From positions 1-64,000 of the forward strand of contig NZ_NMPZ01000017.1 in assembly GCF_002224675.1 (NCBI RefSeq): a DNA stretch of 64,000 bases, given 5' to 3'. A program made the position numbers and the translations under genes. The stretch is from Segatella copri (GTDB taxonomy: Bacteria; Bacteroidota; Bacteroidia; Bacteroidales; Bacteroidaceae). Positions 30,728-58,732 of the stretch are shown piece by piece. The notes under the pieces are model-generated. The model saw only the letters and a list, made by a program, of their open reading frames with translations, made no database searches and had not been told where the DNA came from. Numbering within the stretch: position 1 is the first letter of the stretch; the number at the start of each line of letters is the position of its first letter.

Positions 30728-30728
30728 A

Positions 30729-42019: not shown

Positions 42020-42802
42020 ATGGGAAAAAGAATCGTAGTAAAAGTGGGCAGCAACGTGCTGACACGAGAAGACGGAAAACTGGATGTAACGAGAATGTCG
42101 GCAATTGTGGATCAGATTGTCTGGCTCAGAAAGCACGATTATGAGGTGATTCTGGTATCTTCTGGTGCCGTGGCTGCCGGAAGAGCCGAACTGCACGTTG
42201 ACCACCATCTGGACAGCGTGGAGCAACGCCAGTTGTTCTCTGCCATCGGACAGGTGAAACTCGTTGGTCTCTATTACAACCTTTTCCGCGAATACAAGAT
42301 CAAGATAGGTCAGGTATTGACCATGAAGGAGAATTTCGGTGCCGAGGAGCAGTATAAGAACCAGGAAGCCTGCATGCAGGTGATGCTGGAAAACAACGTG
42401 CTCCCTATCGTCAACGAGAACGATACCGTGTGCATCACCGAGCTGATGTTTACCGATAACGATGAGTTGTCAGGCTTGATTGCCAAGATGATGAATGCCG
42501 ACACCTTGATCCTATTAAGTAATGTGGATGGCATCTACAATGGCGACCCAAGCGAGCCAACCACCCGCATCATCCCATCGGTTTATTACGACCGCGACAT
42601 CAGCGAGTATATCCTTGCCAGCAAGAGCAGCCACGGCAGAGGCGGTATGACATCGAAAGTAAAGACCGCTCACGACGTAGCCAATGCCGGCATCAAGGTG
42701 ATCATCGCCAACGGCAATACGCCAAACATTCTCATCAATCTGAAGGAACATCCGATGGAGACCCTTCATACCGAGTTTGTGGCAAGACCTAAAGAGAAGT
42801 AG
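42020..42802 (+). CDS. proB: glutamate 5-kinase, short form without PUA domain
   Basis: 260 aa. Amino-acid kinase fold: IVVKVGSNVLT at residues 5-15, VSSGAVAAG, NENDTVCITELMFTDNDELS and the ATP-binding region LILLSNVDGIYNGDPS, GGMTSKVKTAHDVANAG. It phosphorylates glutamate as the first step of proline synthesis. Many ProB proteins are about 365 aa and carry a C-terminal PUA domain; this one stops right after the kinase domain. It has its own terminator at 42828-42872. A diverged, broken piece of a second proB lies at 47734-47934. Confidence 0.95.
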   Translation: MGKRIVVKVGSNVLTREDGKLDVTRMSAIVDQIVWLRKHDYEVILVSSGAVAAGRAELHVDHHLDSVEQRQLFSAIGQVKLVGLYYNLFREYKIKIGQVLTMKENFGAEEQYKNQEACMQVMLENNVLPIVNENDTVCITELMFTDNDELSGLIAKMMNADTLILLSNVDGIYNGDPSEPTTRIIPSVYYDRDISEYILASKSSHGRGGMTSKVKTAHDVANAGIKVIIANGNTPNILINLKEHPMETLHTEFVARPKEK

Positions 42803-43029: not shown

Positions 43030-43076
43030 CAGCGTGAAAATAATTAATGTATAATCTTATAAAAAAACGACACGCT

Positions 43077-44741
43077 ATGAAGAAAGTGAACAAGATGAAT
43101 TTTCTTTTAGAAGAAACAAGCAAGTGGCTATTATCATTAGGACTCATTATCTCAATGGGAGCCTGCAGTGACAACGATTCTGACGAGAATGTGCCTAATC
43201 CAGGACATACTCCACTGACAGATGTTCAAGTAGCGCCACGCAATCCTTACCTGGCATCCGAACATTATAGTATCACGCATTTCAATTCAGCGCAGACCGA
43301 CGCTTTCCCTTATGCAGTGAAGGATGGTATATTCACCGTGAATCCGGAGAATTGTGCTTCTACCTGGAGCGGACCTGTCAACCTGATGACACTCTCCTCT
43401 ACCTCACCAGATTACATGTGGGGTATGAGCAGCGACCGCGTATCCTATATCAACGTAAAAGACGGAAAGTTTGAGCGCATTGTCGAAGCGGAACTTCCAG
43501 ACATCAAGAAGCATACCAAGGAAGAGTTAGAAAAACTGACTGCCGACTATTCATCACTGAATGACTTGACCCAAGCGGCAACAGACATCCTGGGACAGAT
43601 GCCACAGATGTCGATGGCGAACGGATGCTACGTTTTGTGCGACAAGGACAATTATGTATATATCAATGCTGGAAGAAAGCTGTCTCGATATCGTCTCAAG
43701 AACGCCTCCAAGCCTGAGGAAGGAATCATGTTGGACAACACGATAAACCTGGCTTCCAACATAGCCAATTCACGCACCCTTGTAGGAGTATCCATGACAT
43801 TTGATGGTCATCTGATTGTTGCGGCTCAACGTTGCCTGTTGATGCTAGACCGTGGCTTGACTACCATAGAGGATACCTATACCCTGCCTACAGACCAGAT
43901 ATTGACCAATTCCGTCTCAGTGGACGAAAACTCTGTCTATGTGGCGAGCAACAGCACCGAGCCTAACGGCAAGGGATTGATGCAGCGCATTATCTGCAAG
44001 AATGGCAAGTTCTCTACAGATGCTTCCGAAGGTGCTTGGCAAGCTTCTTATGATGGAGGTCCTGCTGCTCCTTGCATTAAATTGGGCTATGGTACTGGCT
44101 CCACTCCTACCTTGATGGGATTTGGTAGCGACGAAGACAAACTCGTTGTCATCACCGATGGCAGCAAACGCATGAAGTTAGCAGCATTCTGGCGAGACGA
44201 GATTCCTACAGATGCCAAGGTCATTGAAGAAGGCAACCCTAGATTGGCGGGAGTGTTTGAAGTATCATGCGGACTTCCTGTCTCTACTGAGTGGGTGCAG
44301 TCAGAACAGTCGGTAGTAGTAGGCGGCTATGAGGCTTTCGTTGTAAACAACATCAAGGAAACTGCCGAAAAAGCTACAGACAAGATTATCGGTGTATTGG
44401 CGATTGGTCCTCTCTTGGAAGGTCCAAAAGGCGTGGAGTGTGTACGTTGGAATGTAAAGGACAACAAATGGGAGGCTCTTTGGAGTCGCTCTGACATAAG
44501 TTCTATAAGTATGATTCCTGCTGTTAGCACTGCTTCTGACATGGTCTTCGTAAATGGTTGGTACGATAATACAGGTTGGAAGATTACAGGTTTGGATTGG
44601 GCAACAGGCAAGACTCGCCACCAAGTGAATCTGGGTAAAAGTAATCGAGGCAATGGCGCATATGCCATCTTGCAGTACTTCCCGAATGGTGACTTATTGT
44701 TTAATTCGGTGGCAGGACCTTTCCGTGCCCCATTAAAGTAA
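43077..44741 (+). CDS. unknown lipoprotein, beta-propeller-like
   Basis: 554 aa from ATG 43077; the frame also opens at 43047 and has a second ATG at 43095. A lipoprotein signal ends at SLGLIISMGACSDND. The mature protein is a series of strands separated by loops, such as DYMWGMSSDRVSYINV, NYVYINAGRKLSRYRL, DGHLIVAAQRCLLMLD, NSVYVASNSTEPNGKG and DLLFNSVAGPF; the spacing fits a beta-propeller. I know no family for it. It ends 2 nt before a second lipoprotein gene with a similar lipobox, followed by a membrane regulator: a three-gene unit of unknown job. Confidence 0.75.
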   Translation: MKKVNKMNFLLEETSKWLLSLGLIISMGACSDNDSDENVPNPGHTPLTDVQVAPRNPYLASEHYSITHFNSAQTDAFPYAVKDGIFTVNPENCASTWSGPVNLMTLSSTSPDYMWGMSSDRVSYINVKDGKFERIVEAELPDIKKHTKEELEKLTADYSSLNDLTQAATDILGQMPQMSMANGCYVLCDKDNYVYINAGRKLSRYRLKNASKPEEGIMLDNTINLASNIANSRTLVGVSMTFDGHLIVAAQRCLLMLDRGLTTIEDTYTLPTDQILTNSVSVDENSVYVASNSTEPNGKGLMQRIICKNGKFSTDASEGAWQASYDGGPAAPCIKLGYGTGSTPTLMGFGSDEDKLVVITDGSKRMKLAAFWRDEIPTDAKVIEEGNPRLAGVFEVSCGLPVSTEWVQSEQSVVVGGYEAFVVNNIKETAEKATDKIIGVLAIGPLLEGPKGVECVRWNVKDNKWEALWSRSDISSISMIPAVSTASDMVFVNGWYDNTGWKITGLDWATGKTRHQVNLGKSNRGNGAYAILQYFPNGDLLFNSVAGPFRAPLK

Positions 44742-44743
44742 AT

Positions 44744-46066
44744 ATGACGATGAATAAAATCTGGAATTTAAGTTTATTGTGCCTGGGCGCATTGGTATTG
44801 ATCGTCCAGACAGCTTGCAGCGATAATGACAGCGATTCCCGAGAAGTTCCACAAGTCGTTCCAACAGCTCAGTGGAGCCAGACGATGGCAGGAAATGGTG
44901 AGACATTGGGAGCTTATCCCGATCTCTACAGCAACTATTGGGAATTTACTTATCGCCAGGATGAGAACTCTGATAAAATTATCTGCATCAAGGGACAATA
45001 CCCTTACTGCAGATACATGAGTTTCTCATTCTACAATGACGAGACAGGAGATGTCATCGGCGGTTTGGACGATATCAACATTCATGCAGATGCTGGTTCT
45101 ACCAATCCATTCAAAAAGACTATATCGGGCAAAAACTACTATACCCTCTATGTGGTATCTGACGATGTTAGCCAAAAAGTACTGGACAAGTTGAAAGGCG
45201 CCAATATCTGCAAGGTAGATTCCAAAGTCAAGAAGGTGATGATATGTCATCGCCAATACCTTGGTACAAAGGAAGATGGCAAGACCGATGACGAGTTTGG
45301 TGGAGTATCATTGCCTGAAATCACGGCATTGGACACAGAAAACTTCAAGAATGTAGTTCCACCTGCACATGTGGAATCGAATGTCTATAAGATTACATCG
45401 AAAGTTTTCTCACAGAAGTCGGATGAGAACAACCAAGTGCCATTTTTCCTGGCACCAGTGAGCAGGTATTACCCGAACAATTCCACCTCTTATCTCTATG
45501 CTCGCACCCATCTGCAGAAGGATTCCATCTTGGCGTTCACCTTCTATCCTGTTACTGCACCGACCAAGCCTGAGGAATACGCTACAGCTGATGCCCGATA
45601 TTGGTCCATCTGTCTAGGTTCTGCATCCGATACCCGTTCATATTATTCAATATGTGACCGTGATGCAAGATACGAGCCTGGCAAGAAAGCCATGTTCTTC
45701 ATCTGCCTGAAAAACAACCCTAAGTTGAAGGAGATTGAGGAAAAGGTGAGAAAGCTCAATGAGGAACAAGGTGGTTTCGTGAACCTCATGGTATGGGACA
45801 GCGAGAAGAAAAACATAGACGGAAAGCCTATTGGCGAATATATCGCATTGATGTATCGCAACATCCTGCCTAATCCTGACTGCCTTTATTCTATGGTGAA
45901 GATGACACCTACGGCATATAAGGACGAAAAGGGTGAACCTATCGACCATGTCACCGACCCAGAAAATCAGTTGGCGCATCTAGCATTGGGGAGATATGGT
46001 CCTATAGGCACAAAAATCAGCACCCAGTTATTCCTGGAAGCCCGCATTGATGTCGTACACATGTAA
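44744..46066 (+). CDS. unknown lipoprotein (DUF1214-like region, tentative)
   Basis: 440 aa; start 44744, or ATG 44750. The lipobox is VLIVQTACSDNDSD, nearly the same as in the preceding gene. A strand-rich core contains YPYCRYMSFSFYNDETGDVI and YYTLYVVSDDVS, recalling the RYWSLTLYD-type motif of DUF1254/1214 proteins, but length and the rest differ. Later it has ARYWSICLGS and a C-terminal helical stretch. The function is unknown. It is probably secreted together with the preceding lipoprotein and controlled by the membrane-bound regulator gene 113 nt downstream. Confidence 0.7.
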   Translation: MTMNKIWNLSLLCLGALVLIVQTACSDNDSDSREVPQVVPTAQWSQTMAGNGETLGAYPDLYSNYWEFTYRQDENSDKIICIKGQYPYCRYMSFSFYNDETGDVIGGLDDINIHADAGSTNPFKKTISGKNYYTLYVVSDDVSQKVLDKLKGANICKVDSKVKKVMICHRQYLGTKEDGKTDDEFGGVSLPEITALDTENFKNVVPPAHVESNVYKITSKVFSQKSDENNQVPFFLAPVSRYYPNNSTSYLYARTHLQKDSILAFTFYPVTAPTKPEEYATADARYWSICLGSASDTRSYYSICDRDARYEPGKKAMFFICLKNNPKLKEIEEKVRKLNEEQGGFVNLMVWDSEKKNIDGKPIGEYIALMYRNILPNPDCLYSMVKMTPTAYKDEKGEPIDHVTDPENQLAHLALGRYGPIGTKISTQLFLEARIDVVHM

Positions 46067-46155
46067 TAAACATGATTTACGTCAGGCAGGCAACACTGCT
46101 AGTTTAATTTTTGTAAAAATAGTGACTGTGATTTGCCCATCTTGATAAAAAGCAT

Positions 46156-46163
46156 TACTTTTG
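46156..46163 (+). promoter_or_regulatory. promoter -7 element of the membrane-bound regulator
   Basis: TACTTTTG followed by CA. The ATG at 46180 is about 10 nt from the predicted start, so the leader is very short. Confidence 0.55.
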
Positions 46164-46179
46164 CAAAAAAGTATCAAGA

Positions 46180-47385
46180 ATGGGAATATCTATCGAATTT
46201 GCAAGCCCAGACATATTTTATGCCTTGGCTTGCTTTACTTATATAATAGTAGGCATAACATGTGGCATCATCAGATGGTGCCACATGTGCCATCCTTACG
46301 ACAAACAGGCAGACTTCTTTTATCCTGCTCGCCGGCAAGTGACCTTTTATTTTGCGGCAACTGTCTTGCAGTTCCCATATATATTATGCCCACATGACGC
46401 TGACTTGTGGTTTTACGTCCGCTCGTTTGGCATCATCTATTATCCGATGTGTGCAGCCATGATGTTCCATCGTTACTTCCGCCTGGGACATGGTAATCGT
46501 AATTGGCTGTCGCGTTTCAAGTTTTCCATATCTATTGGTTTACTCGTCGTGCTAATGCTCCTATCTCTGTTCCATACCGATGACACATTCTCAAGAAACC
46601 AGTTGGTATGGGAATGTGTTATGGGTGGCATAAGCCTTCTGCTCACCATGGATTTTGTAATCGAAGGTCGATGGCTCAATCATCAGATAGACAATTACCA
46701 CACACAGAATTACTCCAATGACAGCGATTTTCCGTATGCTTTTGCCAAGAAGGTGATTTATCAACCCCTGGGATGTTTCTTGTTGATGTGGATAGTTTTT
46801 CTTACAGACAGCAGAATGGTAAAAATGATTGTTGACCTACTGCTTGCAGCCTGGATGCTGCTTATCCTATGTATGATATTGCATCCCAACCGCATGATAC
46901 ATTCTACAGAAGTAAAAGAGAAAATGGAAAAGTTGGAAGCGGAAAGCCTTCAACTGGTACAGAAAGAAGCCGAAGAAACTGAAAATCAGGTCATCGCAGA
47001 GGACATGGTTGAGGGTGAAAAAGGAACATCAGTGAAAACTGAAAGACAAATTCAGCCAGAGGAGTGGGATACCGTGAGACAAGAAGTGCTTACCATCGTG
47101 AGTCGGCGGTATCTGGAACCCAGCCTGAAACGAGTGGAAGTAATAGGCGATGTAAGAAAATCCACACACAGCTTGGCGGGCAAGTTTATCACAAAAATAG
47201 GATTCTACCAATTGGTAAATGCCTTCCGCATCCGCCATTACGAGCAACTGATACAAGATGCGCCTGCAGCTATGAGCCAAGAAATGGCCGCCGAGAAATG
47301 TGGCTTCAAGAATCGCTGGGCACTCTCCAATGCCCGCAAGCGAATGAAAGATTTCGACTATTCGCTTATCGAGAAATATCTATAA
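46180..47385 (+). CDS. membrane-anchored AraC-like helix-turn-helix regulator
   Basis: 401 aa. The first 235 residues hold about six hydrophobic helices (e.g. FYALACFTYIIVGITCGIIR, FSISIGLLVVLMLLSLFHT, LLLAAWMLLILCMILHP). A charged, coiled-coil-prone linker (KEKMEKLEAESLQLVQKEAE) follows. The C-terminal 100 residues are HTH-like (FITKIGFYQLVNAFRIRHYE, MAAEKCGFKNRWALSNARKR). It has the same architecture as the regulator at 7644 but a more divergent DNA-binding domain. It follows the two unknown lipoprotein genes and is their likely regulator. A perfect 17-bp hairpin ends it. Confidence 0.8.
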   Translation: MGISIEFASPDIFYALACFTYIIVGITCGIIRWCHMCHPYDKQADFFYPARRQVTFYFAATVLQFPYILCPHDADLWFYVRSFGIIYYPMCAAMMFHRYFRLGHGNRNWLSRFKFSISIGLLVVLMLLSLFHTDDTFSRNQLVWECVMGGISLLLTMDFVIEGRWLNHQIDNYHTQNYSNDSDFPYAFAKKVIYQPLGCFLLMWIVFLTDSRMVKMIVDLLLAAWMLLILCMILHPNRMIHSTEVKEKMEKLEAESLQLVQKEAEETENQVIAEDMVEGEKGTSVKTERQIQPEEWDTVRQEVLTIVSRRYLEPSLKRVEVIGDVRKSTHSLAGKFITKIGFYQLVNAFRIRHYEQLIQDAPAAMSQEMAAEKCGFKNRWALSNARKRMKDFDYSLIEKYL

Positions 47386-47414: not shown

Positions 47415-47459
47415 AAAATGGCAGAAAGTTTACCTACGGATTAAACTTTCTGCCATTTT
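47415..47459 (+). terminator. perfect 17-bp hairpin after the membrane-bound regulator
   Basis: AAAATGGCAGAAAGTTT (47415-47431) and AAACTTTCTGCCATTTT (47443-47459) pair without mismatch, followed by CTTTTG. A less perfect copy occurs at 55747-55790, upstream of the other ATPase relic. Confidence 0.8.
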
Positions 47460-47640
47460 CTTTTGCTCATTCAAGAAATAGTCGTATCTTTACCATTACA
47501 ACAAAGTTGTAACACCAAAAATGTAATGGCGTATGAAACTAAGTAACAGGAAATTAGCAAATCCTTTCATCTATCAAGGATATGAAAGTCCTGAGTATTT
47601 CTGCGATAGAGAAGCAGAGACTGCTACCCTTTTATCTCAT
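47415..47640 (+). repeat. direct repeat, copy 1 (hairpin + promoter + ATPase 5' end)
   Basis: This stretch is homologous in the same direction to about 55747-55990. It comprises the hairpin, a promoter-like element (TATCTTTA at 47485, the last base changed from the usual G), a leader dyad (CCATTACA...TGTAATGG) and the first codons of an ATPase. The two copies flank the alpha-galactosidase/lactonase region. Confidence 0.85.
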
Positions 47641-47934
47641 CTGAAGAACGGCAGGAACGTAACACTTATCTCTCGGCATAGAATTGGCAAAACGGGACTC
47701 ATCAAGAATACCTTCTTCTATCTCGAGGAAGAAGAGAACGATACCGTGTGCCTTACCGAGTTGATGTTCACCGATAATGACGAGTTGTCAGGCTTGATAG
47801 CCAGGATGTGGCGAATGCCGGCATCAAGGTGATCATCGCCAATGGCAATGTGCCCAATATCCTCATCGACCTGAAGGAGCATCCGATGGAAACCCTTCAT
47901 ACCGAGTTTGTGGCAAGACCGCTAAACAAGTAAA
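47533..47934 (+). pseudogene. chimeric relic: ATPase 5' end fused to a diverged proB 3' fragment
   Basis: The frame from ATG 47533 starts as a prokaryotic AAA ATPase (NPFIYQGYESPEYFCDRE, NVTLISRHRIGKTGLIKN; the P-loop normally reads PRRIGKTG). From 47734 the DNA switches to proB: ENDTVCLTELMFTDNDELSG matches ProB with one change. At 47805 it jumps to the ProB end at a shared GATG, deleting 187 bp relative to 42487-42674 and shifting the frame; in that frame the text reads VANAGIKVIIANGNVPNILI and so on to a stop at 47932-47934. The proB pieces differ from the intact gene at several per cent of sites, so the copy is not recent. The open frame ends early at about 47832. Not functional. Confidence 0.85.
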
Positions 47935-47966
47935 ATCATCAGGGATAAGAAATACAGAAACCTAAA

Positions 47967-48004
47967 AAAGCAGCAAGCCTATTTATAGACTTTGCTGCTT
48001 TTCG
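47967..48004 (+). terminator. terminator-like hairpin after the chimeric relic
   Basis: GCAGCAAG and CTTTGCTGC pair and are followed by TTTTCG. It resembles the arginine-operon terminator at 27124-27156. It also faces the end of the convergent alpha-galactosidase gene. Confidence 0.65.
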
Positions 48005-48028
48005 TTTTCATTATGAATAGTTGATACG

Positions 48029-50209
48029 TTATTCAAATACCAATACGTGGCTGATTCCATCGGTCTGACCGAATACATTCAAGCCGACTTTCATCAGATA
48101 GTCACCGCTGTACTGCTTGCCATTGCACTCCAAATCAGACTCCTTACCAGGCATCAGATTAGTCTCCTTTACGGTATAAACCTTATCGGCATCCAATCCC
48201 TGCATCTTCACATTCATCACAGGCTCCTTGTAGCGTGGATGCAAGTCGTAAGCAAAGAGAACGGCACGATGCTTGTCCTTACTTACATAGTTAATGGCAC
48301 AATGGTTGCCTTCGTATGGAGAAACCAGACGATACTGGTCACCCTCAAGAATCATCGGCTTCATGCTATCGTAGTTCTTAACAGCATTCTGCACAAACTT
48401 GTAGTCATCACCAGAAAGCGACTTGAGGTCGATATCAAAGCCCAACTTACATGAACTGCAAACATCGGTGCGGAACTTCACACTGGTATTCTTGTTCCAG
48501 TTAGTTACATGCGAACCCATGGTCTTGGCTGGGAAGAACTTTGACAGGCTCCACTGGATGTAGAGGCGCTCGTATGGATCCGTATCGTCAGAACACCAGA
48601 ACTCAGTGAAATACTTCAGCATCTCGTAATCCATTCTGCCGCCACCACCAGAACAAAGCATCATCGGCAACTTAGGATACTTCTTATGAATACGGGTAAG
48701 CACCTTGTAGATACCACGCACATGATCGATATAGAAATTACCCTGATTCTCCTTATGATATGGAGAATAGATATTGGTAATCACACTGTTGCAGTCCCAC
48801 TTGAAGTAAGCCACATCCGGATTCTCCGTCATGATACGATCCACGATGCCGAACACATAATCCTGTACCTTAGGATTACTGATATCAAGTACCAGCTGGT
48901 TGCGGTAATAATAAGTATCACGCTTTGGCTGCATAATCACCCAGTCAGGATGCTTCTCAAAGAGTTCACTCTTAGGATTCACCATCTCAGGCTCAATCCA
49001 AATACCAAACTTTACACCAGCCTTCTTGGCATCTCTTACCAATCCTGGTATTCCATCAGGCAACTTGCTCTTGGTAGCCTCCCAGTCGCCGAGACCTGCA
49101 TGGTCGTCCTTACGAGGATACTTGTTGGCAAACCAACCATCATCAAGCAAGAACATATCTACACCCAGGTCCTTGGCATCCTTCATCAACTCAGCAAGAC
49201 TCTGCTGGTTGAAGTCGAAGCCGGTATTCTCCCAGTTGTTCAAGAGCGTAAGGCGATCTTCCATACCCATATTTACCTGATACTGACGAGCCCAATTGTG
49301 CAAATTACGGGAAGCCTCACCGATACCATTATCGCTCATGGCAAAGATAAACTCAGGGGTAGTGAACGTCTCACCAGCCTTCAGCTTATAGTTAGAGGCG
49401 TATGGATTGATGGCAGGAATAACACGAAGGGCTCCCACGTTATCTACCTCGAAGGTAAAGCGGAAGTTGCCAGGCCATCCGATGGTTCCAAGCATCACCT
49501 TGCCCTCATTCTCCTTGGCTGGCTCATCGAATCCCAGTTCAAAGAACGGCTCCTCATGCATGGCTGCACGGGTACCCAACTTGGTATCAACAATTTTCTT
49601 ACCAGCAGTCAACTGGCAAGTCTCAGGCTGTCCTTCCTTAGCCCAGTCGCTATGATAACTGGTAACGAAATACTTGTTTGCCTTGAAATAAAGCATTGTA
49701 GAGCTATATCTCCAAAGCGTAACCGGAGCTTTCTCCTTATGAGAAATTTCGCTCCATGCCTTGATGACGTTCTCCTTAGGGTAAGCTGCATAGTGGAGCT
49801 TTACGGTCAGCGGATACACCTTGTCCTTAAGAGTGATGATGGTCTCAACACCTCCACTGATAGCCTTTTCTTCAGAAGACTGGTAATACAAATAGGTGGT
49901 CATGTTACCATCTGCATGGGTCACTGCCACTGCCGGCTCGAAGAAATCTTCAGCACCAGAGGATGCATAAACCTCATGACCTCGCTGGCAGACGGAACCA
50001 TCAGAAGCCGCATATACATCCCACTTCAGATGATTGTAATCTGAAGGATTCTTCAATTTGTCACCCAGATACACTTGGTAGAGGCGACCCTTAGGAGAAA
50101 CCTGCATCACGAGGTCGGTCTTATCGGTTGACACTCGGATGGTCTTTTGAGCAGATGCCATGATAGATGTCATGCACATCGCTGCGATAATCATAAATAC
50201 CTTTTTCAT
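48029..50209 (-). CDS. secreted alpha-galactosidase, GH36
   Basis: 726 aa, signal peptide MKKVFMIIAAMCMTSIMASA. The N-terminal beta-sandwich domain is followed by the TIM barrel: DMFLLDDGWFANKYPRKDDH, VKFGIWIEPEMVNPKSEL, VAYFKWDCNSVITN with the nucleophile Asp at about residue 471, and EFWCSDDTDPYERLYIQ with the acid/base Asp at about 540. A C-terminal beta domain ends it. It removes terminal alpha-galactose from raffinose-type oligosaccharides or galactomannan. It follows the TonB receptor by 65 nt (with a GTTATAATTATAAC palindrome) and is probably in its operon. Confidence 0.94.
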   Translation of the reverse strand: MKKVFMIIAAMCMTSIMASAQKTIRVSTDKTDLVMQVSPKGRLYQVYLGDKLKNPSDYNHLKWDVYAASDGSVCQRGHEVYASSGAEDFFEPAVAVTHADGNMTTYLYYQSSEEKAISGGVETIITLKDKVYPLTVKLHYAAYPKENVIKAWSEISHKEKAPVTLWRYSSTMLYFKANKYFVTSYHSDWAKEGQPETCQLTAGKKIVDTKLGTRAAMHEEPFFELGFDEPAKENEGKVMLGTIGWPGNFRFTFEVDNVGALRVIPAINPYASNYKLKAGETFTTPEFIFAMSDNGIGEASRNLHNWARQYQVNMGMEDRLTLLNNWENTGFDFNQQSLAELMKDAKDLGVDMFLLDDGWFANKYPRKDDHAGLGDWEATKSKLPDGIPGLVRDAKKAGVKFGIWIEPEMVNPKSELFEKHPDWVIMQPKRDTYYYRNQLVLDISNPKVQDYVFGIVDRIMTENPDVAYFKWDCNSVITNIYSPYHKENQGNFYIDHVRGIYKVLTRIHKKYPKLPMMLCSGGGGRMDYEMLKYFTEFWCSDDTDPYERLYIQWSLSKFFPAKTMGSHVTNWNKNTSVKFRTDVCSSCKLGFDIDLKSLSGDDYKFVQNAVKNYDSMKPMILEGDQYRLVSPYEGNHCAINYVSKDKHRAVLFAYDLHPRYKEPVMNVKMQGLDADKVYTVKETNLMPGKESDLECNGKQYSGDYLMKVGLNVFGQTDGISHVLVFE

Positions 50210-50274
50210 CGTTCTTTGGTTTTTACGTGATTGCTTTGTTATAATTATAACGCTATGATTCTTTCGTTATTATC

Positions 50275-52581
50275 TTAGAATTTGATTCCTGCAGAGAATT
50301 CCACCGTGAACGGACGGAGATAGCTACCACTCATGTACTTGCCTTCATATTTTCCGGCTTCCTGCTTGGTAATCAGCTCAGAACCGCTAATGGTACCCTT
50401 GGCACCCTTCTCGTTGAAGATATTGATGACACTCACACCAAGGCTCAGCTTCTTGTTCACATTCCAGTTGATTCCGCCGAAAGTTTCCCAGTGACCATTG
50501 AAATAGAGTGCCTCCTGAAGGTTGGCATAGGTCTTACCGAAGTAACGGAAGCTCAACCAGGCATTCAGATTCTTGGTGATGTCGTATTTAGGGTCCAACT
50601 CGATAAGAACCTGAGGAATCTCCTTGACAATCATATTGTTGGCATTCACACCCATAGACTGACCGTCACTGAACGTTACGCTCGCATTATAGTTCTTATA
50701 CACCGGCTTCTGATAGGTGAAGAGTGCATGCATGTGGAAGTTCTTGAACGGATTGATTTCTGCCGAGGTTGTCCAACCCAAAGTCTGGATGTTATAGATG
50801 AGCAACACGGTCTTACCCTCTGTAGTGCCAGGCTTGGTAAGATTCTGCTGATCGATATTGTTCGACTTTGAAATGTAGGTCACCATTGAAGAAAGGTCAA
50901 TCCAATCATTCTTGTAGAAAATACCACCACGAATCAGTGGGATGGTTACTCGCTTATACTGCTCCTCGGTAGGACCTGTTCCAGCATACTCGCTGATGCG
51001 TGGGAAACGGGTGGCGATGGTAGCATCGGCTGTCAGACCAAACTGGCGGGTAAGGTTATACGTCAACTGCAAGGTGGCTGCATAATTCAATTTATCCTTG
51101 GTTACGTTCTTTGCTTCGATGCTGTGCTCGGTAGCAACAACAGAACCATCAGCAGCAGTGACGTATGTATTATAGTTACCCATGTGGAATCCTGAGAAAC
51201 GTGGAGTAGAAATCTGCTCGGCAGACATGCGGTAGTACTCCAATCTACCACCATAGAACACCTTGAACTTAGGACTTACCTTCCATTCGTCGGTAAAGTA
51301 GAGTGCTAACTTGTTCTCTGAACCCTTGGTGTATTCAGGACTCAACTCATTATAGCCGAAAGTCTCAGAACGACGGGCTGTCTGTGTAGGATCAAGCGGA
51401 TTGACATACATCTGGCTCAATGTGCGTGGATAAGCTTCTACGGTGCCTGCCCACTGGAACGAAGACGAATAGTAATTGAGATGGTAATACCACTCGTTCA
51501 AACCAATCATTAATTTATGGTTGTTCAACTGCTTGGAGATTTCGGTAGTCAAAAGCGCATTGCTCACCTTACCAACATGCAACCAGGTGCGACGGCCTTC
51601 TATATAACCACTGTAGGCAGACCCATCAGAAAGCTGATAGCCATCAGCCTCGCTCACCTGAGAGATGGTACTTCCTCCGTAATCCACAAAATTGGCACGT
51701 GGAGCATTCATATATTTGGCGTTGAATTTCCACAACCATCCATTATCAAACTGATACTGGCTGATGAGGGCAATTTCGTTGGCATGATTCTCACTGCCAT
51801 CGCTCATATTCCATGTCTCCATCTTTCCTGACTTTGTATTCAAGTATTGGAAAGAACCTTGACGCTGCACGTATGAGTCCATACCCGGGTCAAAGCCATC
51901 AATCTTCTTGATACTGCCGTCGCCTGAATAGATAAATGGTGCGGCATTGGCAAAATTGCCAGGGTTCTTGCTGTTGGAATACTTATATAATAAGGAGATA
52001 CGTCCCTTTCCATCATTCAAGATGCGAGTGATACCGAAATGATAAAGTTGGGTACGGTCGGCATAATCAGTAAAGCGAAGCTTGAAACTACCTGGATCGA
52101 AATTCTGATACATACTGGCAGTATAAAGCCAATTGTCACCGATTCCACCAGACAGGTTGAGATCTACATTCTGCATACCAAAATGGTTTGCCTTATAGTT
52201 GAGCTTGCCCTTGAACTCTTTCTGTCCCAACTCGCTGAAAGAAGAAACTGCGTACGCAATATTACCAGTAGCAATGGCAGACTCAGATGGAGTCATCAAG
52301 TCGGTACCTTTCAGTGAGGCATCGCTACGCCAATGTGCAGACAGTCTGTGTACGGAAGAAGAGTAAACGGCAGGAAGACCGTTCTCATATACGGTTACAT
52401 CCTCGCTTGGCAATCCTATCTGGATTTCACGAGGCTTGTTGGCATCAGATGCGTTGAGCATCACATTACGCTCTTCCTTTTTCTCCTTGTTTTCAGATTC
52501 GTCGGAAGGAAGTGCATACACTTGGCTTGCAGCAGACATCGCTACCAAAGCCATAGAAAATGTACGGATTCTTAAGTTCAT
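50275..52581 (-). CDS. TonB-dependent receptor, non-SusC type
   Basis: 768 aa, signal peptide about MNLRIRTFSMALVAMSAASQ VYA. No carboxypeptidase-regulatory-like domain is present, and the plug is degenerate (IQIGLPSEDVTVYENGLPAV, SSSVHRLSAHWRS). A beta-barrel follows with typical strands (FKVFYGGRLEYYRM, LGVSVINIFNEKGAKG), ending PFTVEFSAGIKF with the C-terminal Phe needed for barrel assembly. It likely imports a small sugar or other solute for the adjacent alpha-galactosidase. It has its own promoter (52652-52659) and diverges from the DUF6377 gene. Confidence 0.9.
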   Translation of the reverse strand: MNLRIRTFSMALVAMSAASQVYALPSDESENKEKKEERNVMLNASDANKPREIQIGLPSEDVTVYENGLPAVYSSSVHRLSAHWRSDASLKGTDLMTPSESAIATGNIAYAVSSFSELGQKEFKGKLNYKANHFGMQNVDLNLSGGIGDNWLYTASMYQNFDPGSFKLRFTDYADRTQLYHFGITRILNDGKGRISLLYKYSNSKNPGNFANAAPFIYSGDGSIKKIDGFDPGMDSYVQRQGSFQYLNTKSGKMETWNMSDGSENHANEIALISQYQFDNGWLWKFNAKYMNAPRANFVDYGGSTISQVSEADGYQLSDGSAYSGYIEGRRTWLHVGKVSNALLTTEISKQLNNHKLMIGLNEWYYHLNYYSSSFQWAGTVEAYPRTLSQMYVNPLDPTQTARRSETFGYNELSPEYTKGSENKLALYFTDEWKVSPKFKVFYGGRLEYYRMSAEQISTPRFSGFHMGNYNTYVTAADGSVVATEHSIEAKNVTKDKLNYAATLQLTYNLTRQFGLTADATIATRFPRISEYAGTGPTEEQYKRVTIPLIRGGIFYKNDWIDLSSMVTYISKSNNIDQQNLTKPGTTEGKTVLLIYNIQTLGWTTSAEINPFKNFHMHALFTYQKPVYKNYNASVTFSDGQSMGVNANNMIVKEIPQVLIELDPKYDITKNLNAWLSFRYFGKTYANLQEALYFNGHWETFGGINWNVNKKLSLGVSVINIFNEKGAKGTISGSELITKQEAGKYEGKYMSGSYLRPFTVEFSAGIKF

Positions 52582-52651
52582 AATCTTACAGTTGTTTATT
52601 CTTAGTTTGACTTGATTTCACTTGCCACCGAATGCGATTCGGTTGCGGTTG

Positions 52652-52659
52652 CAAAGTTA
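52652..52659 (-). promoter_or_regulatory. promoter -7 element of the TonB receptor/GH36 operon
   Basis: TAACTTTG followed by CAACC on the minus strand, about 70 nt before the receptor ATG. The 303-bp spacer 52582-52884 holds this and the divergent promoter at 52807, and no gene. Confidence 0.6.
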
Positions 52660-52806
52660 AGGAGATTTTTCAGACATTGGCATCATGTGTAGGTTACGAG
52701 TAGATAAATACCAGGTTTATTAAGTTCATAATCTATTAATAATCAAGCTACCAAAGATATTAATACTTTTTAATAGAGTAGATAATAAAAAGAGGAATAA
52801 AAGTAG

Positions 52807-52814
52807 TATCTTTG
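52807..52814 (+). promoter_or_regulatory. promoter -7 element of the DUF6377 gene
   Basis: TATCTTTG followed by CAG; leader about 65 nt. Confidence 0.65.
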
Positions 52815-52884
52815 CAGAAAAATACAATTATAAGGCACTCTAATAGCCTATCTGATAGTAACAATAACAATTAAAAGAATAGTT

Positions 52885-54501
52885 ATGAAAGTAGTATTGT
52901 GGTTCTTAATGATGCTTATGCCATTGCTGGCAAGTGCTTCTTCCGTAAACGAGGAACAGCTGTTCCATCGTCTAGACAGTTACATCGCTCAGCGAAGCAA
53001 GTTTACCCAAAGAAAAGAAGCGAAACTGCTAAGACTCAAAAAGCAACTACACATGACTTCCGACAAGCGTAGCCAGCTTAGTCTCTATAACCAAATCTAC
53101 AGGGAGTATTATACCTACCGTTACGACTCTGCCATGACATACGCCAAGAAGGGCTACCAGCTGGCAGTACAACTTCAGGATGATTATTTCGTCAACCTGA
53201 ATAAAATCAATCGCGCGGCAGTGCTGTCAACAGGCGGTTTCTACAGCCAGGCAGAAGACTTAATGCTCACAATGGATGTGGAGAAAATGTCACCTAAGTT
53301 ATTGCAATACTATTATTATACCTTGACTTGGGTATATAGCTACTGGGAAACATTCTGCAACAAGTCGGAGTTTCAAGAAGGATTCGCAGCCAAGAAACGT
53401 TTTTATTTAGGCAAGACTCTTGAGCATATCGGCAACAAGGAATCCGCTCTTTATTACTATCTTTCAGGAGAGTTTGAATTTCTAAAGCAGCGTACTAGTA
53501 AAAAGACGCTTCAGTTCTACATGAAGGCACTTTCAGCCAGTCCCCTGAACAGCCGTGTGCATGCCTCATCGGCTTATTGCATAGCCCGCTATTATTATGA
53601 TACCGACCAAAAGGATTTATACGAAAAGTATATTGTAGAAGCAGCCATCTCAGACCAGATATGTCCCCTGAAGGAGAATCTGGCCCTTCAGGAGTTTTCC
53701 ACCTATCTATATAATAAGGATGCCTCCTATGCAAAGAGGGTTGCCAAATACCTCTATTGCTCCATGGAGGATGCCCAATTCTACAACAACCGTCTCCGCA
53801 TGGTTGAGATTTCACGCATACTTCCCCTTATCACAGAAACGAACCATCAGGCAGAAGTACGCAAGAACCGCATCATAACAGCATCTCTCGTCATCGTGAG
53901 TATCCTGTCGCTAGGATTCCTTGCCATGGCTTTCTTTGCATTCAAGATGAACAAGCGTCTGGCCAAGAGCCGTAGGGAGATAAAAAGCCAAAATACACTC
54001 TTGGACGAACTGAACCAGAAGCTGCTCAATACCAATAAGCGAAGAGAGACCTATATGCATTTATTCATGGACATCAGCGCCGTATATATCAAGAAACTGG
54101 ATGATTATCGCAAATTGGTAAGCCGCAAAATCAAGGCAAAACAAACTGCCGATCTTCTGACTGCCATCAGCAGCTACAAGCTGGCAGAAGAAGAGGCTGC
54201 CAACTTCTATATTCGCTTCGACAAGGCATTCATTGACTTGTATCCGAATTTCGTCGCAGAGTTCAACCAACTGCTGTTGCCAGAAAAGCAGATTGTTCTC
54301 CCTGCCCCTAACAGTCTCACCAAGGAACTGCGTATCTATGCACTGATGCGACTAGGAATTACGGATGGTCAGGAACTGGCCACCCTCCTGTTCTATTCTA
54401 CGCAAACCATCTATAATTACAAGACAGCCATCAGAAAGCGAGCCAAAGACCTCACCACTTTTGATGCAGCCATCAACCGACTATGCAATGTGATAGGCTA
54501 A
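52885..54501 (+). CDS. DUF6377-type TPR membrane regulator
   Basis: 538 aa, signal peptide MKVVLWFLMMLMPLLASASS. Residues about 25-320 are TPR-like helices. One transmembrane helix lies near 330-353 (ITASLVIVSILSLGFLAMAF). A coiled coil of about 35 residues (SRREIKSQNTLLDELNQKLL) and a C-terminal domain ending in a helix-turn-helix (ELATLLFYSTQTIYNYKTAI) follow. It is thus a single-pass sensor/transcription factor of the kind common in Bacteroides and Prevotella. It diverges from the TonB receptor/GH36 operon and is its likely regulator; the inducer would bind the periplasmic TPR part (inference). Confidence 0.85.
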   Translation: MKVVLWFLMMLMPLLASASSVNEEQLFHRLDSYIAQRSKFTQRKEAKLLRLKKQLHMTSDKRSQLSLYNQIYREYYTYRYDSAMTYAKKGYQLAVQLQDDYFVNLNKINRAAVLSTGGFYSQAEDLMLTMDVEKMSPKLLQYYYYTLTWVYSYWETFCNKSEFQEGFAAKKRFYLGKTLEHIGNKESALYYYLSGEFEFLKQRTSKKTLQFYMKALSASPLNSRVHASSAYCIARYYYDTDQKDLYEKYIVEAAISDQICPLKENLALQEFSTYLYNKDASYAKRVAKYLYCSMEDAQFYNNRLRMVEISRILPLITETNHQAEVRKNRIITASLVIVSILSLGFLAMAFFAFKMNKRLAKSRREIKSQNTLLDELNQKLLNTNKRRETYMHLFMDISAVYIKKLDDYRKLVSRKIKAKQTADLLTAISSYKLAEEEAANFYIRFDKAFIDLYPNFVAEFNQLLLPEKQIVLPAPNSLTKELRIYALMRLGITDGQELATLLFYSTQTIYNYKTAIRKRAKDLTTFDAAINRLCNVIG

Positions 54502-54534
54502 CCAGAACAAGTGCCTGGTAAGCCCCAAAGCGTA

Positions 54535-55662
54535 TTAATTGGCAAACTGCACGCAGACAGGTTTTCCAACCTTTATGTCCTGCTTCGTATCAACCATCAT
54601 TCCAGTTTTCTTATTGAGTTTGAAAACCTGAATCACATGGCTGTCACGGCACGCCACAAGCATGAACTGTCCGTTAGGCGTGATGGCGAAGTTGCGAGGA
54701 TGGGCAGCTGTAGGTTGGAATCCTATCTTTGTGAGCAGACCCGATTTCTTATCTACGGCAAATACCGAAATGCCCTCATCGGTTAACCGATGGGAAGCAT
54801 AGAGAAAGCGACCGTCAGGAGACAGATGAATATCGGCACTTCCAAGCGTACGGGTCTTCGAAGCCTGTATGCGCTGCAACTCCTGCAATGTACCCTTGTT
54901 ATATCCCAATACGGTTACCGTGCCATCCAGTTCGCCTATCAGGTAAGCCACATTGCCTTTTGAATTGAATACAAGATGGCGTGGTCCCGTTCCTTTAGGT
55001 GCCTGATAGGCAAGAACAGGATTAGATAAAAATTCCTTTCCATCATTTACCTGGAAGCGCCAGATACAGTCGTTCCCCAAATCATTGGCAAGCATATATT
55101 GATGATCAGGAGTCATCTGGCAGCAATGGATATGCGATACCATGCCGCTCCCCTCCCGATGCATATCAAAATATTGCGATTCTGGCGCCACACTTCCATC
55201 TTCCTTGATTGGGAATAAGGAAATATCACCCCCATTATAATTGGAAGTCACCACATACCCACCATACAGCATCACATTGCATGGTGCCGCACCCGGCATC
55301 TTGTTTTCCGGTCGAGTAGCCTTCGTTCCGCACTTCTGATACCCAAGCGGAGTCATCGTTCCCTCCTTCTTATTGAGGATGAAAGCCCCGAGCCCTTGTC
55401 GCCCATCATCATATTCGCTCACGGCATAAACCCGATTTGCATCATGATTCATCATGAGAAACGAAGGATTGCCCGCTTGTACATTGCTAACCAATTGTGA
55501 TTTCCCAGTACGTTGGTTGAAACGATAAACATACATTCCGTCAGAAGTACTCTGGTCGGTATAGGTACCTACTACCATTGTAAGTTCATCACTCGCCACT
55601 GCCGGCATCCCCACAGCCATTGTCAAGGACAAGCCTGCCAATATCGTCTTTATATTGCCCAT
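54535..55662 (-). CDS. secreted lactonase/YbhE-family seven-bladed propeller
   Basis: 375 aa from ATG 55662 (signal MGNIKTILAGLSLTMAVGMP); a frame extending to 55827 crosses the promoter. Repeated blades carry the lactonase-family signature: LTMVVGTYTDQSTSDGMYVY, NRVYAVSEYDDGRQGLGAF, CNVMLYGGYVVTSNYNGGDI, GPRHLVFNSKGNVAYLIGEL and HPRNFAITPNGQFMLVACRD. The family includes 6-phosphogluconolactonase (YbhE) and muconate-cycloisomerase-like propellers. The periplasmic location argues against 6-phosphogluconate and for a different sugar lactone. Convergent with DUF6377 (33 nt between the stops). Confidence 0.88.
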   Translation of the reverse strand: MGNIKTILAGLSLTMAVGMPAVASDELTMVVGTYTDQSTSDGMYVYRFNQRTGKSQLVSNVQAGNPSFLMMNHDANRVYAVSEYDDGRQGLGAFILNKKEGTMTPLGYQKCGTKATRPENKMPGAAPCNVMLYGGYVVTSNYNGGDISLFPIKEDGSVAPESQYFDMHREGSGMVSHIHCCQMTPDHQYMLANDLGNDCIWRFQVNDGKEFLSNPVLAYQAPKGTGPRHLVFNSKGNVAYLIGELDGTVTVLGYNKGTLQELQRIQASKTRTLGSADIHLSPDGRFLYASHRLTDEGISVFAVDKKSGLLTKIGFQPTAAHPRNFAITPNGQFMLVACRDSHVIQVFKLNKKTGMMVDTKQDIKVGKPVCVQFAN

Positions 55663-55712
55663 AATTGCTATATTTATTATCAAGTCAATAGTATATATAA
55701 TGTTTAGAGGGG

Positions 55713-55720
55713 CAAAAATA
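55713..55720 (-). promoter_or_regulatory. promoter -7 element of the lactonase gene
   Basis: TATTTTTG followed by CCCC on the minus strand, about 51 nt before ATG 55662. Confidence 0.55.
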
Positions 55721-55746
55721 CAAAAAGAAAAGGAAACGGGCAAATG

Positions 55747-55990
55747 AAATGGCAGAAAATTGAGAATAATCCTCAACTTTCTACCATTTTCTTTTGCATA
55801 TTCAATAAATAGTTGTATCTTTGCCATTACAATAAAGTTGTAACACTAAAGATGTAATGGCGTATGAAACTAAATAACAGGAAATTAGCAAATCCTTTCA
55901 TCTGCCAAGGTTATGAAAGTCCCGAGTATTTCTGCGACAGAGAGGCTGAAACAAAGACCTTGATGTTGTACTAAAGAATGGAAGGAATAA
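55747..55990 (+). repeat. direct repeat, copy 2 (hairpin + promoter + ATPase 5' end)
   Basis: Homologous to 47415-47640 in the same orientation. It has an imperfect hairpin (55747-55790), an intact TATCTTTG at 55816-55823, the CCATTACA...TGTAATGG dyad and the ATPase start. Homology runs through the AAGAATGGAAGGAAT block that matches the LKNGRN codons of the other copy, past the apparent start of the downstream nuclease. Confidence 0.85.
55864..55974 (+). pseudogene. second relic of the same ATPase gene
   Basis: Thirty-six codons from ATG 55864 (MKLNNRKLANPFICQGYESP, then EYFCDREAETKT) match the first residues of the relic at 47533. The frame then ends at TAA 55972-55974, after a shift relative to copy 1. 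Homology to copy 1 continues to about 55990. The rest of the ATPase is missing and replaced by a YhcG-type nuclease gene. The promoter before it is intact and probably now drives the nuclease. Confidence 0.85.
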
Positions 55991-57168
55991 CAGCTAAAAT
56001 CAGTAGCATTATGAAAGAACCCGGCAAGAAATATAACGATGAAGACAACATGCTCGTCAACGACTTGCGTTCCATCGTCAGCAAGGCTCGCAGCAAAGCA
56101 TTTGCTGCCGTCAATTATTCTCTGGTGGAAAGAAACTGGAGAATAGGACAACGTATTGTGGAACAGGAACAGAACGGAGCATCACGTGCAGAATACGGAA
56201 AGCATGTGATAGAGATTGCTTCGGCTGCTCTTACAGAGGAATTCGGGAAGGGATTCTCATATACGAATATTGCCAATTACAAAAGGTTTTATCTGACATT
56301 CAACAACTTACAAATTCTTCAGACAATGTCTGAAGAATTTAACAATCCAATTCAGCAGACACTGCCTGCTAAATCTTCAGCCCCGCACAAAGAAGACAAA
56401 GCAGAGTCTACCCAATCCGAGTTACGCCTTCTTCCTTGGTCTCATTACGAGCGACTTATACGAGTAGAAGACAAAAAGGCTCGTGAATGGTATGCAAAGG
56501 AGGCATTCGAGCAAGGTTGGAGTTTCAGAACCTTGAACCGCAATATCAACACCTTATATTATGAACGTCTTCTTATGTCAAAGAAGAAGCAGCCAGTCGT
56601 TAACGAGATGCAAGACAAGACAAAGGCTTATCAGCAAGACAAACTCGAATACATCAAATCACCTGTTGTCTTGGAATTCCTTGGATTACCGGAAGGCCCC
56701 TCCCTTGCAGAATCAAAACTGGAGACAGCCATCATCAACAACCTAGAGAAATTCTTGATGGAAATGGGAAAGGGATATGCGCTTGTGGCTCGTCAGCAAC
56801 ATATTCGAACCGAGGAAAACGACTACTACATCGATTTGGTGTTTTACAATTACCTCATCAAATCATTTATTTTGGTCGATTTGAAGGTAAATCGCATCAC
56901 TTATCAAGATGTAGGACAGATGGATATGTATCTTCAGATGTACGACAAGAAGAAAAAAGGACCAGACGACAACCCTACCATCGGCATCATCCTTTGCACC
57001 GAGACCGATTCGGATGTGGCACGATACTCTACCCTCGCCAAAAACGACCAGATGTTCGCTGCTAAATACAAGCTTTACTTGCCAGACAAAGAAGACCTCA
57101 GAAGAGAAATCGAACGACAGAAGGAACTGTATCTAATGGCTCATCCTGAAGAAAACGATAAAGAGTAA
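55978..57168 (+). CDS. YhcG/DUF1016-type PD-(D/E)xK nuclease, second copy
   Basis: 396 aa if read from ATG 55978. The first residues (MEGIT) fall in DNA derived from the ATPase relic, so ATG 56011 (MKEPGKKYN) is a likely ancestral start. The DUF1016 helical domain is at about 30-195 (NYSLVERNWRIGQRIVEQEQ, FSYTNIANYKRFYLTF, LLPWSHYERLI), with a polar insert of about 40 residues. The nuclease domain is at about 225-375, with YYIDLVFYNYLIKSFILVDL giving D...DxK, then GQMDMYLQMYD. It is clearly diverged from the copy at 27348. No other restriction gene is adjacent. A strong terminator follows at 57207. Confidence 0.87.
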   Translation: MEGITAKISSIMKEPGKKYNDEDNMLVNDLRSIVSKARSKAFAAVNYSLVERNWRIGQRIVEQEQNGASRAEYGKHVIEIASAALTEEFGKGFSYTNIANYKRFYLTFNNLQILQTMSEEFNNPIQQTLPAKSSAPHKEDKAESTQSELRLLPWSHYERLIRVEDKKAREWYAKEAFEQGWSFRTLNRNINTLYYERLLMSKKKQPVVNEMQDKTKAYQQDKLEYIKSPVVLEFLGLPEGPSLAESKLETAIINNLEKFLMEMGKGYALVARQQHIRTEENDYYIDLVFYNYLIKSFILVDLKVNRITYQDVGQMDMYLQMYDKKKKGPDDNPTIGIILCTETDSDVARYSTLAKNDQMFAAKYKLYLPDKEDLRREIERQKELYLMAHPEENDKE

Positions 57169-57400: not shown

Positions 57401-58732
57401 ATGGAACTGAAAGAGACTTTCCAAAAAGTGAAGGCAGCCAGCAAGACACTGGGCTTGCTCAGCGACGAACAACGTAATGAAATCCTGCAGGCGGTGGCTG
57501 ATGCTATCATCGCAGAGACTCCTGCGCTCCTTGCAGCAAACGCAGAAGACTTGGCGAAGATGGACAAGGCGAACCCGCTCTACGACCGATTGCAGCTCAC
57601 AGAGCAGCGACTCGTGGATATCGCTTCGGATATGAGACACGTAAGTACCCTGCCCTCACCACTCGGAAGAGTTCTCAAAGACAAGACACTCGAAAATGGT
57701 TTGCACCTGCAGCGAGTAGCCGTTCCATTCGGAGTCATCGGCATGATTTACGAGGCTCGTCCTAACGTAACCTTCGATGTATTCTCGCTCTGTTTCAAGA
57801 GTGGAAACGCTTGCGTATTGAAGGGAGGAAAGGATGCAAACAACTCTAATACAGCAAGTATCGAACTTATCCACAAAGTGTTGATAAAGTATGGAATCAA
57901 TCCTGATGTGGCAACTCTCCTCCCTGCTACCCATGAGGCTACCGGCGAAATGCTGAATGCCGTGGGCTATATCGACCTCTGTATTCCTCGTGGCGGAAAG
58001 AAGCTCATCAACTTCGTACGTGATACTGCCAAAGTACCGGTTATAGAGACCGGAGCCGGCGTGGTACACTGCTACTTCGACAAGGATGGCGACCTGGAGA
58101 TGGGCAAGCGCATCATCACCAATGCCAAGTGCCGAAGAGTGAGCGTATGCAATGCACTCGACTGTCTGCTGATTCATGAAAGCAGATTAAGCAACCTCCC
58201 TGCTCTCTGCGAGGGTCTCGCCGAGAAACAGACCAAGATTCATGCTGATTCCAAGGCTTACGAGGCTTTAAAGGGACACTATCCTGATACCTTATTATAT
58301 AAGGCAGAGGAAAGCGAGGCGAAAATGAAGGAGGCAGGTTTGCTGACTGCGGATTGCAAATCAGCAGGCTCAACAGAAACAGATGCCAACATGAAGAGCA
58401 TCTGGAACACCGAATGGCTCAGCATGCAGATGGGTATCAAGACCGTGGCTTCGGAAGATGAGGCGCTCGAACACATCGCTACCTACGGAAGCGGACACAG
58501 CGAGAGCATCGTTTCCAATGATGAAGCTGCCCAGAAGAAGTTCCAGGCATTGGTAGATGCAGCCTGCGTTTATGTAAACGCTCCTACCAGCTTTACCGAT
58601 GGTGCACAGTTCGGATTGGGCGCAGAGATTGGCATCAGTACCCAGAAGCTTGGAGCCCGCGGACCTATGGCACTAGAAGAGATTACCACCTACAAGTGGC
58701 TGATTACAGGAAATGGACAAACAAGGAAGTAA
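57401..58732 (+). CDS. proA: gamma-glutamyl phosphate reductase with in-frame insert
   Basis: 443 aa; the usual length is about 415-420. Aldehyde-dehydrogenase fold: [56 protein letters not shown] and the catalytic Cys in [20 protein letters not shown]. It reduces glutamyl phosphate to the semialdehyde with NADPH. At about residues 307-335 there is extra sequence ([20 protein letters not shown]) absent from typical ProA. It is encoded around an 18-of-19 copy (58348-58366) of the palindrome at 32193. The frame stays open and the catalytic parts are whole, so activity is likely kept. argF' follows by 57 nt. Confidence 0.95.
58348..58366 (+). repeat. REP-like palindrome inside proA
   Basis: TGCGGATTGCAAATCAGCA matches the reverse complement of the intergenic palindrome at 32193-32211 at 18 of 19 positions. 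It is read in frame as part of the extra segment of ProA. Confidence 0.75.

What the first reader, a model, noticed from the sequence alone, without database searches (positions are those of the whole stretch)
47415..55990. Direct repeats flanking an 8-kb segment, with a nuclease gene grafted onto an ATPase start
The same hairpin-promoter-ATPase start occurs at 47415 and 55747 in the same direction. In the second copy the homology runs into the first codons of the YhcG-type nuclease, whose apparent ATG lies in ATPase-derived DNA. Recombination between the repeats could delete the alpha-galactosidase/lactonase block, and the nuclease seems to have taken over the ATPase promoter.
Basis: partly seen in the sequence, partly recalled or inferred. 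Interest (0 to 1): 0.6.

Follow-up and report, generated by a model that had tools for sequence, protein, structure and literature searches.

The report
Stacked gene cargo between proB and proA
Two sets of passenger genes, each ending in the broken start of the same ATPase gene, appear to have been joined end to end between two proline-synthesis genes of a gut Segatella/Prevotella-type bacterium, and a putative nuclease gene lost its own promoter and now sits behind the one left by the ATPase; it is a recombination scar rather than a new kind of system.

Summary
In detail: hairpin, promoter and ATPase start occur twice in the same direction (90% over 178 nt). Neither copy is a whole gene: copy 1 runs at 47733 into a decayed second proB (47734-47936), copy 2 at 55988 into the leader of the YhcG nuclease. 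In 20 of 20 surveyed genus genomes proA starts within 1.3 kb of proB; here 14.6 kb of cargo lies between. The cargo looks stacked from two sets: proB plus three genes (98% to S. copri iA622) and, behind the second proB, the alpha-galactosidase block (97% to G044). Both relatives carry one truncated ATPase start there, so the repeat is best read as a product of stacking. The nuclease did lose its native promoter at 55988/55989 and lies behind the ATPase promoter; its conserved start is ATG 56011, not 55978. The deletion idea stays open: iA622 shows no close copy of the block and joins the first cargo to an ATPase start that resembles copy 2 more than copy 1 (6 against 3 of 10 sites), as an old deletion might. 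In passing: promoters of this ATPase family carry palindrome arrays of 14-bp period (25 of 47 leaders; 1 of 175 controls).

The parts
42020..42802 (+). proB (glutamate 5-kinase, named from memory), intact copy
   Evidence: 96-97% to G398 (iA622), 77-78% to G044; second copy remnant at 47734-47936
43047..47385 (+). cargo A: three ORFs (564 aa, 440 aa, 401 aa; the last looks AraC-like by eye only, no Pfam hit)
   Evidence: 98.1% to iA622 over 42020-47404; in 298 other genus genomes one weak match at E<=1e-20, G271 67% (two candidates scored per genome); no Pfam family for the 401-aa ORF
47415..47459 (+). hairpin 1 before the ATPase promoter; terminator-like by eye, but the consensus scanner did not flag it
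   Evidence: -23.1 kcal/mol, z -6.08 for 47405-47475; 0 terminator-like sites in 47300-47600
47463..47492 (+). promoter of ATPase copy 1: TTG-N19-TATCTTTA
   Evidence: Bacteroidota promoter consensus recalled
47495..47530 (+). palindromic operator-like leader of copy 1
47533..47733 (+). ATPase start (67 codons), copy 1, truncated
   Evidence: 80% over residues 6-66 and 75% over a longer stretch to the intact ATPase of G386
47734..47936 (+). remnant of a second proB with an internal deletion; joined in frame to the ATPase start (99-aa chimeric ORF 47533-47832)
   Evidence: 97.2% to G044 over 48023-54501
54535..55662 (-). lactonase (PF10282)
55747..55789 (+). hairpin 2
   Evidence: -21.8 kcal/mol, z -7.14 for 55740-55800
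55794..55823 (+). promoter of ATPase copy 2: TTG-N19-TATCTTTG, now upstream of the nuclease
55826..55861 (+). palindromic operator-like leader of copy 2
55864..55988 (+). ATPase start copy 2: 36 codons, stop 55972-55974, then ATPase-like DNA up to the junction 55988/55989
   Evidence: junction from orthologues
56011..57168 (+). YhcG/DUF1016 PD-(D/E)XK nuclease from its conserved start (alternative upstream ATG 55978)
   Evidence: PF06250 and PF17761; start from L089, L091, L098; PADLOC PDC-S02
57401..58732 (+). proA (named from memory), right border of the cargo slot

Best explanation
The repeat is the mark of two stacked cargo sets. In the genus proB and proA are normally neighbours; in the clade of the window the interval is a variable cargo slot. 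One set (cargo A: proB plus three genes, then an ATPase start) lies in front of another (cargo B: a second proB, the alpha-galactosidase block, lactonase, then an ATPase start, YhcG and proA). At 47733/47734 the ATPase start of the first was joined to the second proB, which lost its 5' part and decayed. Most likely linear DNA came in, recombining by homology on the left (acyl-CoA ligase/proB) and by a short-homology end-join on the right. Separately, the ATPase of the second set was cut and joined, at a 4-nt match, to the transcribed leader of the nuclease, removing the nuclease's own promoter. The nuclease is then transcribed, if at all, from the ATPase promoter, through a palindromic operator-like leader and a 36-codon ATPase-derived open frame. 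Shown: repeat, junctions, second proB, likeness of each cargo to a relative, absence of the native promoter. Inferred: stacking as the cause, route of entry, order of events, present-day expression.
For: Second proB remnant joined to copy 1 and lying directly before the alpha-galactosidase block, which in G044 lies downstream of proB. iA622 carries 42020-47404 at 98% followed by a single ATPase start. G044 carries 48023-54501 at 97% plus one hairpin-ATPase start before a YhcG remnant and proA. Mosaic identities: intact proB 96-97% to iA622 but 77-78% to G044, while 59-61 kb is 91-97% to G044 and falls from 93% to 78% against iA622. proA 2-1277 nt after proB in 20 of 20 surveyed genomes, 12301 in G044 and 14598 here. 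No full-length close homologue of this ATPase in G000, G044, G398 or G399 (best full-length match 43% to the G386 protein; G399 is a 2.2-Mb MAG and may be incomplete). iA622 and L098 match from 55989 on and have their own promoter 5' of it. Nuclease dN/dS against iA622 0.16.
Against: iA622's ATPase start is closer to copy 2 (96% over 118 nt) than to copy 1 (92% over 119 nt); of 10 sites that differ between the copies it agrees with copy 2 at 6, copy 1 at 3, neither at 1. So copy 1 is not simply iA622's ATPase start, and iA622 may itself be a deletion derivative of a stacked state rather than a parent. The second proB is not closest to G044's: its two pieces are 87% and 78% identical to G044, 88% and 86% to the window's own proB. 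iA622's proB and proA lie on different contigs, so its full interval is not seen. G044's ATPase start is joined to a different point of YhcG, so its junction and the window's may be separate events. Only three clade relatives were available. No transcript data.
Confidence: 0.7

Rival explanations
1. One reading: the repeats matter because recombination at or near them can remove the 8-kb block. iA622 would be a strain in which this happened. This does not exclude stacking as the origin of the repeat.
For: Same orientation, 90% identity, longest exact run 29 nt. iA622 has cargo A joined at an ATTACA match to an ATPase start closer to copy 2, and only partial 64-71% matches to the alpha-galactosidase block.
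Against: The iA622 joint is not a crossover inside the long repeat (hairpin and promoter 47405-47494 are missing), its ATPase start is cut earlier (about 55943) and runs into another ATPase gene, and iA622 agrees with copy 1 at 3 of 10 sites. A strain with one hybrid hairpin-ATPase start directly before YhcG was not seen among G044, G398 and G399.
Confidence: 0.25
2. Hairpin-promoter-ATPase start is a mobile or repeated element that was copied into two sites.
For: Present in the slot in G000 (two copies), G044 and, without the hairpin, iA622, with different DNAs joined to its 3' side.
Against: No third copy in the genome better than E=0.087 apart from the hairpin's own reverse complement. The 3' ends differ (47733; about 55987; about 55941-55943 in G044 and iA622), unlike a defined element.
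Confidence: 0.07
3. Assembly error or collapsed mixture that created the seam.
For: Draft assembly, 87 contigs; reads not available.
Against: The copies differ by 10%, the proB remnant by 11-15% from the intact gene and it has its own internal deletion; these are diverged and decayed sequences, not duplicated reads.
Confidence: 0.05

Closest known systems
Homology-facilitated illegitimate recombination (PMC3240628; only title and start of abstract seen, in the listing)
   Same: One end by homology, other end joined at a short match; near 47733/47734 the G386 ATPase and the intact proB share CCGTGTGC
   Different: Inferred from an old, decayed seam; the event and the route were not observed, and the left crossover was not mapped
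YhcG/DUF1016 PD-(D/E)XK nuclease; PADLOC phage-defence candidate PDC-S02
   Same: Both Pfam domains above cut-off, PDC-S02 at E=1.4e-133
   Different: Native promoter lost and replaced by that of an ATPase gene
Bacteroidales ATPase_2 (PF01637) multi-copy ATPases
   Same: Copy 1 is 80% identical over residues 6-66 to the G386 ATPase, which hits PF01637
   Different: Only the first 67 or about 40 codons remain; the 99-aa ORF hits no Pfam family

Membership tests
YhcG/DUF1016 nuclease | DUF1016_N and YhcG_C domains | tested here: met
   PF17761 E=1e-39, PF06250 E=2.7e-50, both above the curated cut-off
YhcG/DUF1016 nuclease | nuclease activity, DNA target, defence function | not testable with these tools
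   only the PADLOC candidate family PDC-S02
ATPase_2 ATPase gene (the copies in the window) | complete ATPase domain | tested here: not met
   99-aa ORF hits no Pfam family; copy 2 has a stop after 36 codons
Bacteroidota primary-sigma promoter | -33 TTG, about 19-nt spacer, -7 TAnnTTTG (consensus recalled) | tested here: met
   copy 2 TTG-N19-TATCTTTG; copy 1 ends in TTTA and so meets it less well
Homology-facilitated illegitimate recombination | long homology at one end, short homology at the other | tested here: inconclusive
   short match CCGTGTGC near the seam; left crossover not mapped to a point
Transposable element | copies elsewhere in the genome, fixed ends | tested here: not met
   no third copy better than E=0.087, variable 3' ends
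Transposable element | target-site duplication | not tested
   no empty site was compared

The most novel reading that the evidence does not exclude
The repeated unit is the control region of a widespread Bacteroidales ATPase family in which each ATPase represses its own promoter through a private array of overlapping palindromes spaced exactly 14 bp apart; the nuclease, a defence candidate, was captured into this private circuit after the ATPase itself was lost, which would leave it derepressed or under cross-control by paralogues.
Probability: 0.3. Interest if true: 0.6.

Novelty: new member of a known kind. Interest (0 to 1): 0.35.

Why it matters
It shows, with close relatives of both cargo sets at hand, how a variable chromosomal slot can grow by stacking and how a defence-type nuclease can change promoter at a 4-nt match. 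It also shows that a direct repeat can be the product of an addition, whether or not it later serves a deletion. The side result, 14-bp palindrome arrays at promoters of an uncharacterised ATPase family in Bacteroidales, gives a testable entry to the regulation of that family.

Tried and rejected
Plasmid search with 47390-47840 gave no match. The hairpin-ATPase start as a dispersed element was set aside: the genome has no third copy better than E=0.087. The hairpin as an intrinsic terminator is left open: the scanner found 0 sites in 47300-47600 although the fold is strong. No PDB sequence relative at E<=0.01 for the G386 ATPase or the nuclease. RNA-level explanation of the ATPase leaders: in distant family members the arrays lie upstream of the -7 box (read by eye), so DNA-level binding is preferred. 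Further clade members: a draw of 149 'relatives' gave only G044 as a close hit besides the own genome. Eight paper searches showed no description of this locus or of the arrays in the titles and abstract starts listed; most listings were partial (10 of 25, 20 of 48, 10 of 23, 10 of 35, 6 of 3934, 8 of 8, 8 of 375, 0 of 0), and no paper was opened. Structure prediction was not used.

Limits of counts. The 20 surveyed proB-proA intervals are 20 of the 24 best proB matches after G000 and G044 (G055, G091, G022 and G013 were not fetched), out of 76 of 100 genomes with a match, so they lean to near relatives; distances are between tblastn match ends. Searches scored only 2 to 6 candidates per genome and one search scored 40, so their absences are bounded by that. 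The 47 leaders come from 48 loci, one dropped as identical; several are near duplicates and some starts were placed mechanically; L033, L067 and L038 were left out. In the dinucleotide-shuffle test direct repeats reached p<=0.05 in 27 of 47 leaders and 9 of 105 controls, palindromes alone in 11 of 47 and 6 of 105, both in 6 of 47 and 1 of 105. Controls are different sets of upstream regions of mechanical ORFs, not screened for ATPase family members. The window's own copies reach only 8 and 11 nt at period 14 and would not pass the 13-nt criterion.

Full report
What is there. The direct repeat is real. The ungapped core 47444-47621 / 55775-55952 is 90% identical; the genome has no third copy better than E=0.087. 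It holds a strong hairpin, a TTG-N19-TATCTTT(A/G) promoter, a palindromic leader and the first codons of an ATPase. The longest exact run is 29 nt.

Copy 1 is a fusion. The 99-aa ORF at 47533 is ATPase up to 47733; from 47734 it is a second proB, in two pieces 89% and 85% identical to the intact proB at 42020-42802, with an internal deletion between them. The nearest intact ATPase found is in G386 (80% over residues 6-66 of the 67-aa fragment); it is 379 aa and hits PF01637. Near the seam that ATPase and the intact proB share CCGTGTGC.

Copy 2 is another fusion. The ATPase frame ends at a stop at 55972-55974. Relatives of the nuclease, S. copri iA622 (L089) and a Prevotella MAG (L098), match the window from 55989 on, have a TTG-N19-TATCTTTG box just upstream, and begin with ATGAAAGAACCC, window 56011, with an in-frame TGA eight codons before it (sequences; ORF start). 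A more distant protein (L091) aligns from the same residue. The ATPase (TAACA) and the nuclease leader (GAACA) share AACA at the joint. ATG 55978, three bases after the stop and in frame, could still give an 11-residue extension. The nuclease is 92.7% identical in protein to that of iA622, dN/dS 0.16 against 0.09 for proA; this pairwise value does not isolate the window's branch.

The slot. In 20 of 20 genomes surveyed, the proA match starts 2-1277 nt after the proB match; in G044 12301 nt, here 14598 nt. G044 has proB, other ORFs, the alpha-galactosidase block (97.2% to 48023-54501), an ATPase_2 gene (DUF234 just below cut-off), one hairpin-ATPase start, a 140-nt YhcG piece and proA. iA622 (G398) has proB and cargo A (98.1% over 42020-47404), an ATPase start without hairpin and promoter, then a gene like G044's ATPase_2 gene and the contig end; a second contig has YhcG and proA. 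The ATPase_2 gene of G044 matches PADLOC PDC-S27 (E=7.9e-207), the nuclease PDC-S02 (E=1.4e-133). So the slot carries defence candidates among other cargo.

Stacking. Intact proB is 96-97% identical to iA622 and 77-78% to G044; the alpha-galactosidase block is 97% to G044 and has only 64-71% partial matches in iA622; 59-61 kb is 91-97% to G044 but falls from 93% to 78% against iA622. Copies 1 and 2 are 86% and 87% identical to the G044 copy and 90% to each other. The second proB lies directly before the alpha-galactosidase block, as proB lies upstream of that block in G044. This is what two cargo sets laid end to end give. The proB remnant is not closest to G044, so the actual parent of the second set was not seen. 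No full-length close homologue of the ATPase was found in G000, G044, G398 and G399 (best 43%).

What speaks against the simplest form of this. iA622's ATPase start is 96% identical to copy 2 and 92% to copy 1; at the 10 sites where the copies differ over 119 nt it agrees with copy 2 at 6, with copy 1 at 3 and with neither at 1. In iA622 cargo A ends in ATTACAT and goes on as a copy-2-like leader. So iA622 may be a parent haplotype whose ATPase start resembles copy 2, or a strain that had the stack and lost everything from 47405 to the copy-2 leader. Ten sites do not decide this.

Working. Shown: the native promoter of the nuclease is gone and an intact-looking ATPase promoter ends 188 nt upstream of ATG 56011. 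Inferred: transcription from it, translation past a 36-codon open frame. Whether the nuclease is expressed is unknown.

Side result. Homologues of this ATPase have tandem palindromes at the promoter, differing in sequence between paralogues but with a 14-bp period: a direct repeat of at least 13 nt (one mismatch allowed) at period 14 in 25 of 47 distinct leaders from the genus and 1 of 175 control upstream regions, and in 9 of 29 leaders of an order-wide draw, one of which is a leader of the window's own genome already in the first set. The window copies keep only weak versions (8 and 11 nt at period 14). The C-terminal 90 residues of the G386 ATPase have only sub-threshold Pfam hits; at least three of the five are to winged-helix families by recall (MarR E=0.071, MarR_2 0.18, LexA_DNA_bind 0.16). 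Autoregulation is a hypothesis.

Verdict. The locus is a well-resolved example of known recombination behaviour.

Noticed in passing
upstream of ATPase genes in the loci; weakly in window 47495-47530 and 55826-55861: Promoters of this ATPase_2-type family carry tandem overlapping palindromes with a 14-bp period, sequence differing between paralogues (25 of 47 leaders, 1 of 175 controls; 9 of 29 in an order-wide draw).
   Followed up: partly
window 42832-42866: A palindrome ATTACA-N20-TGTAATGGC just after the intact proB, followed by TTTTT, shares both arms with the ATPase leader (expectation 0.00 in 100 shuffles for all four matches); it may be proB's terminator or a leader relic.
   Followed up: partly
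window 56313-56340: A palindrome inside the nuclease coding sequence (linker, QTMSEEF); the linker differs between strains, and L098 and G044 show several similar palindromes.
   Followed up: no
G000 C17:65593-66528 (L122 5593-6528, minus strand): A second YhcG-like gene, 26% identical, about 8 kb downstream of the first.
   Followed up: no
L071 reverse complement 13432/13445 and L098 440/451: In both G044 and L098 the YhcG match stops at window 56378 and resumes at 57208-57210, so a shared truncated allele seems to circulate.
   Followed up: no
window 28520-31979 and 32305-34241: ORFs that look like McrB/McrC and a nucleotidyltransferase-like plus AAA-ATPase-like pair, by eye only.
   Followed up: no
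window 620-1009 and 14382-14465: A 117-nt inverted repeat (82%) and a 21-nt-spaced tandem repeat.
   Followed up: no
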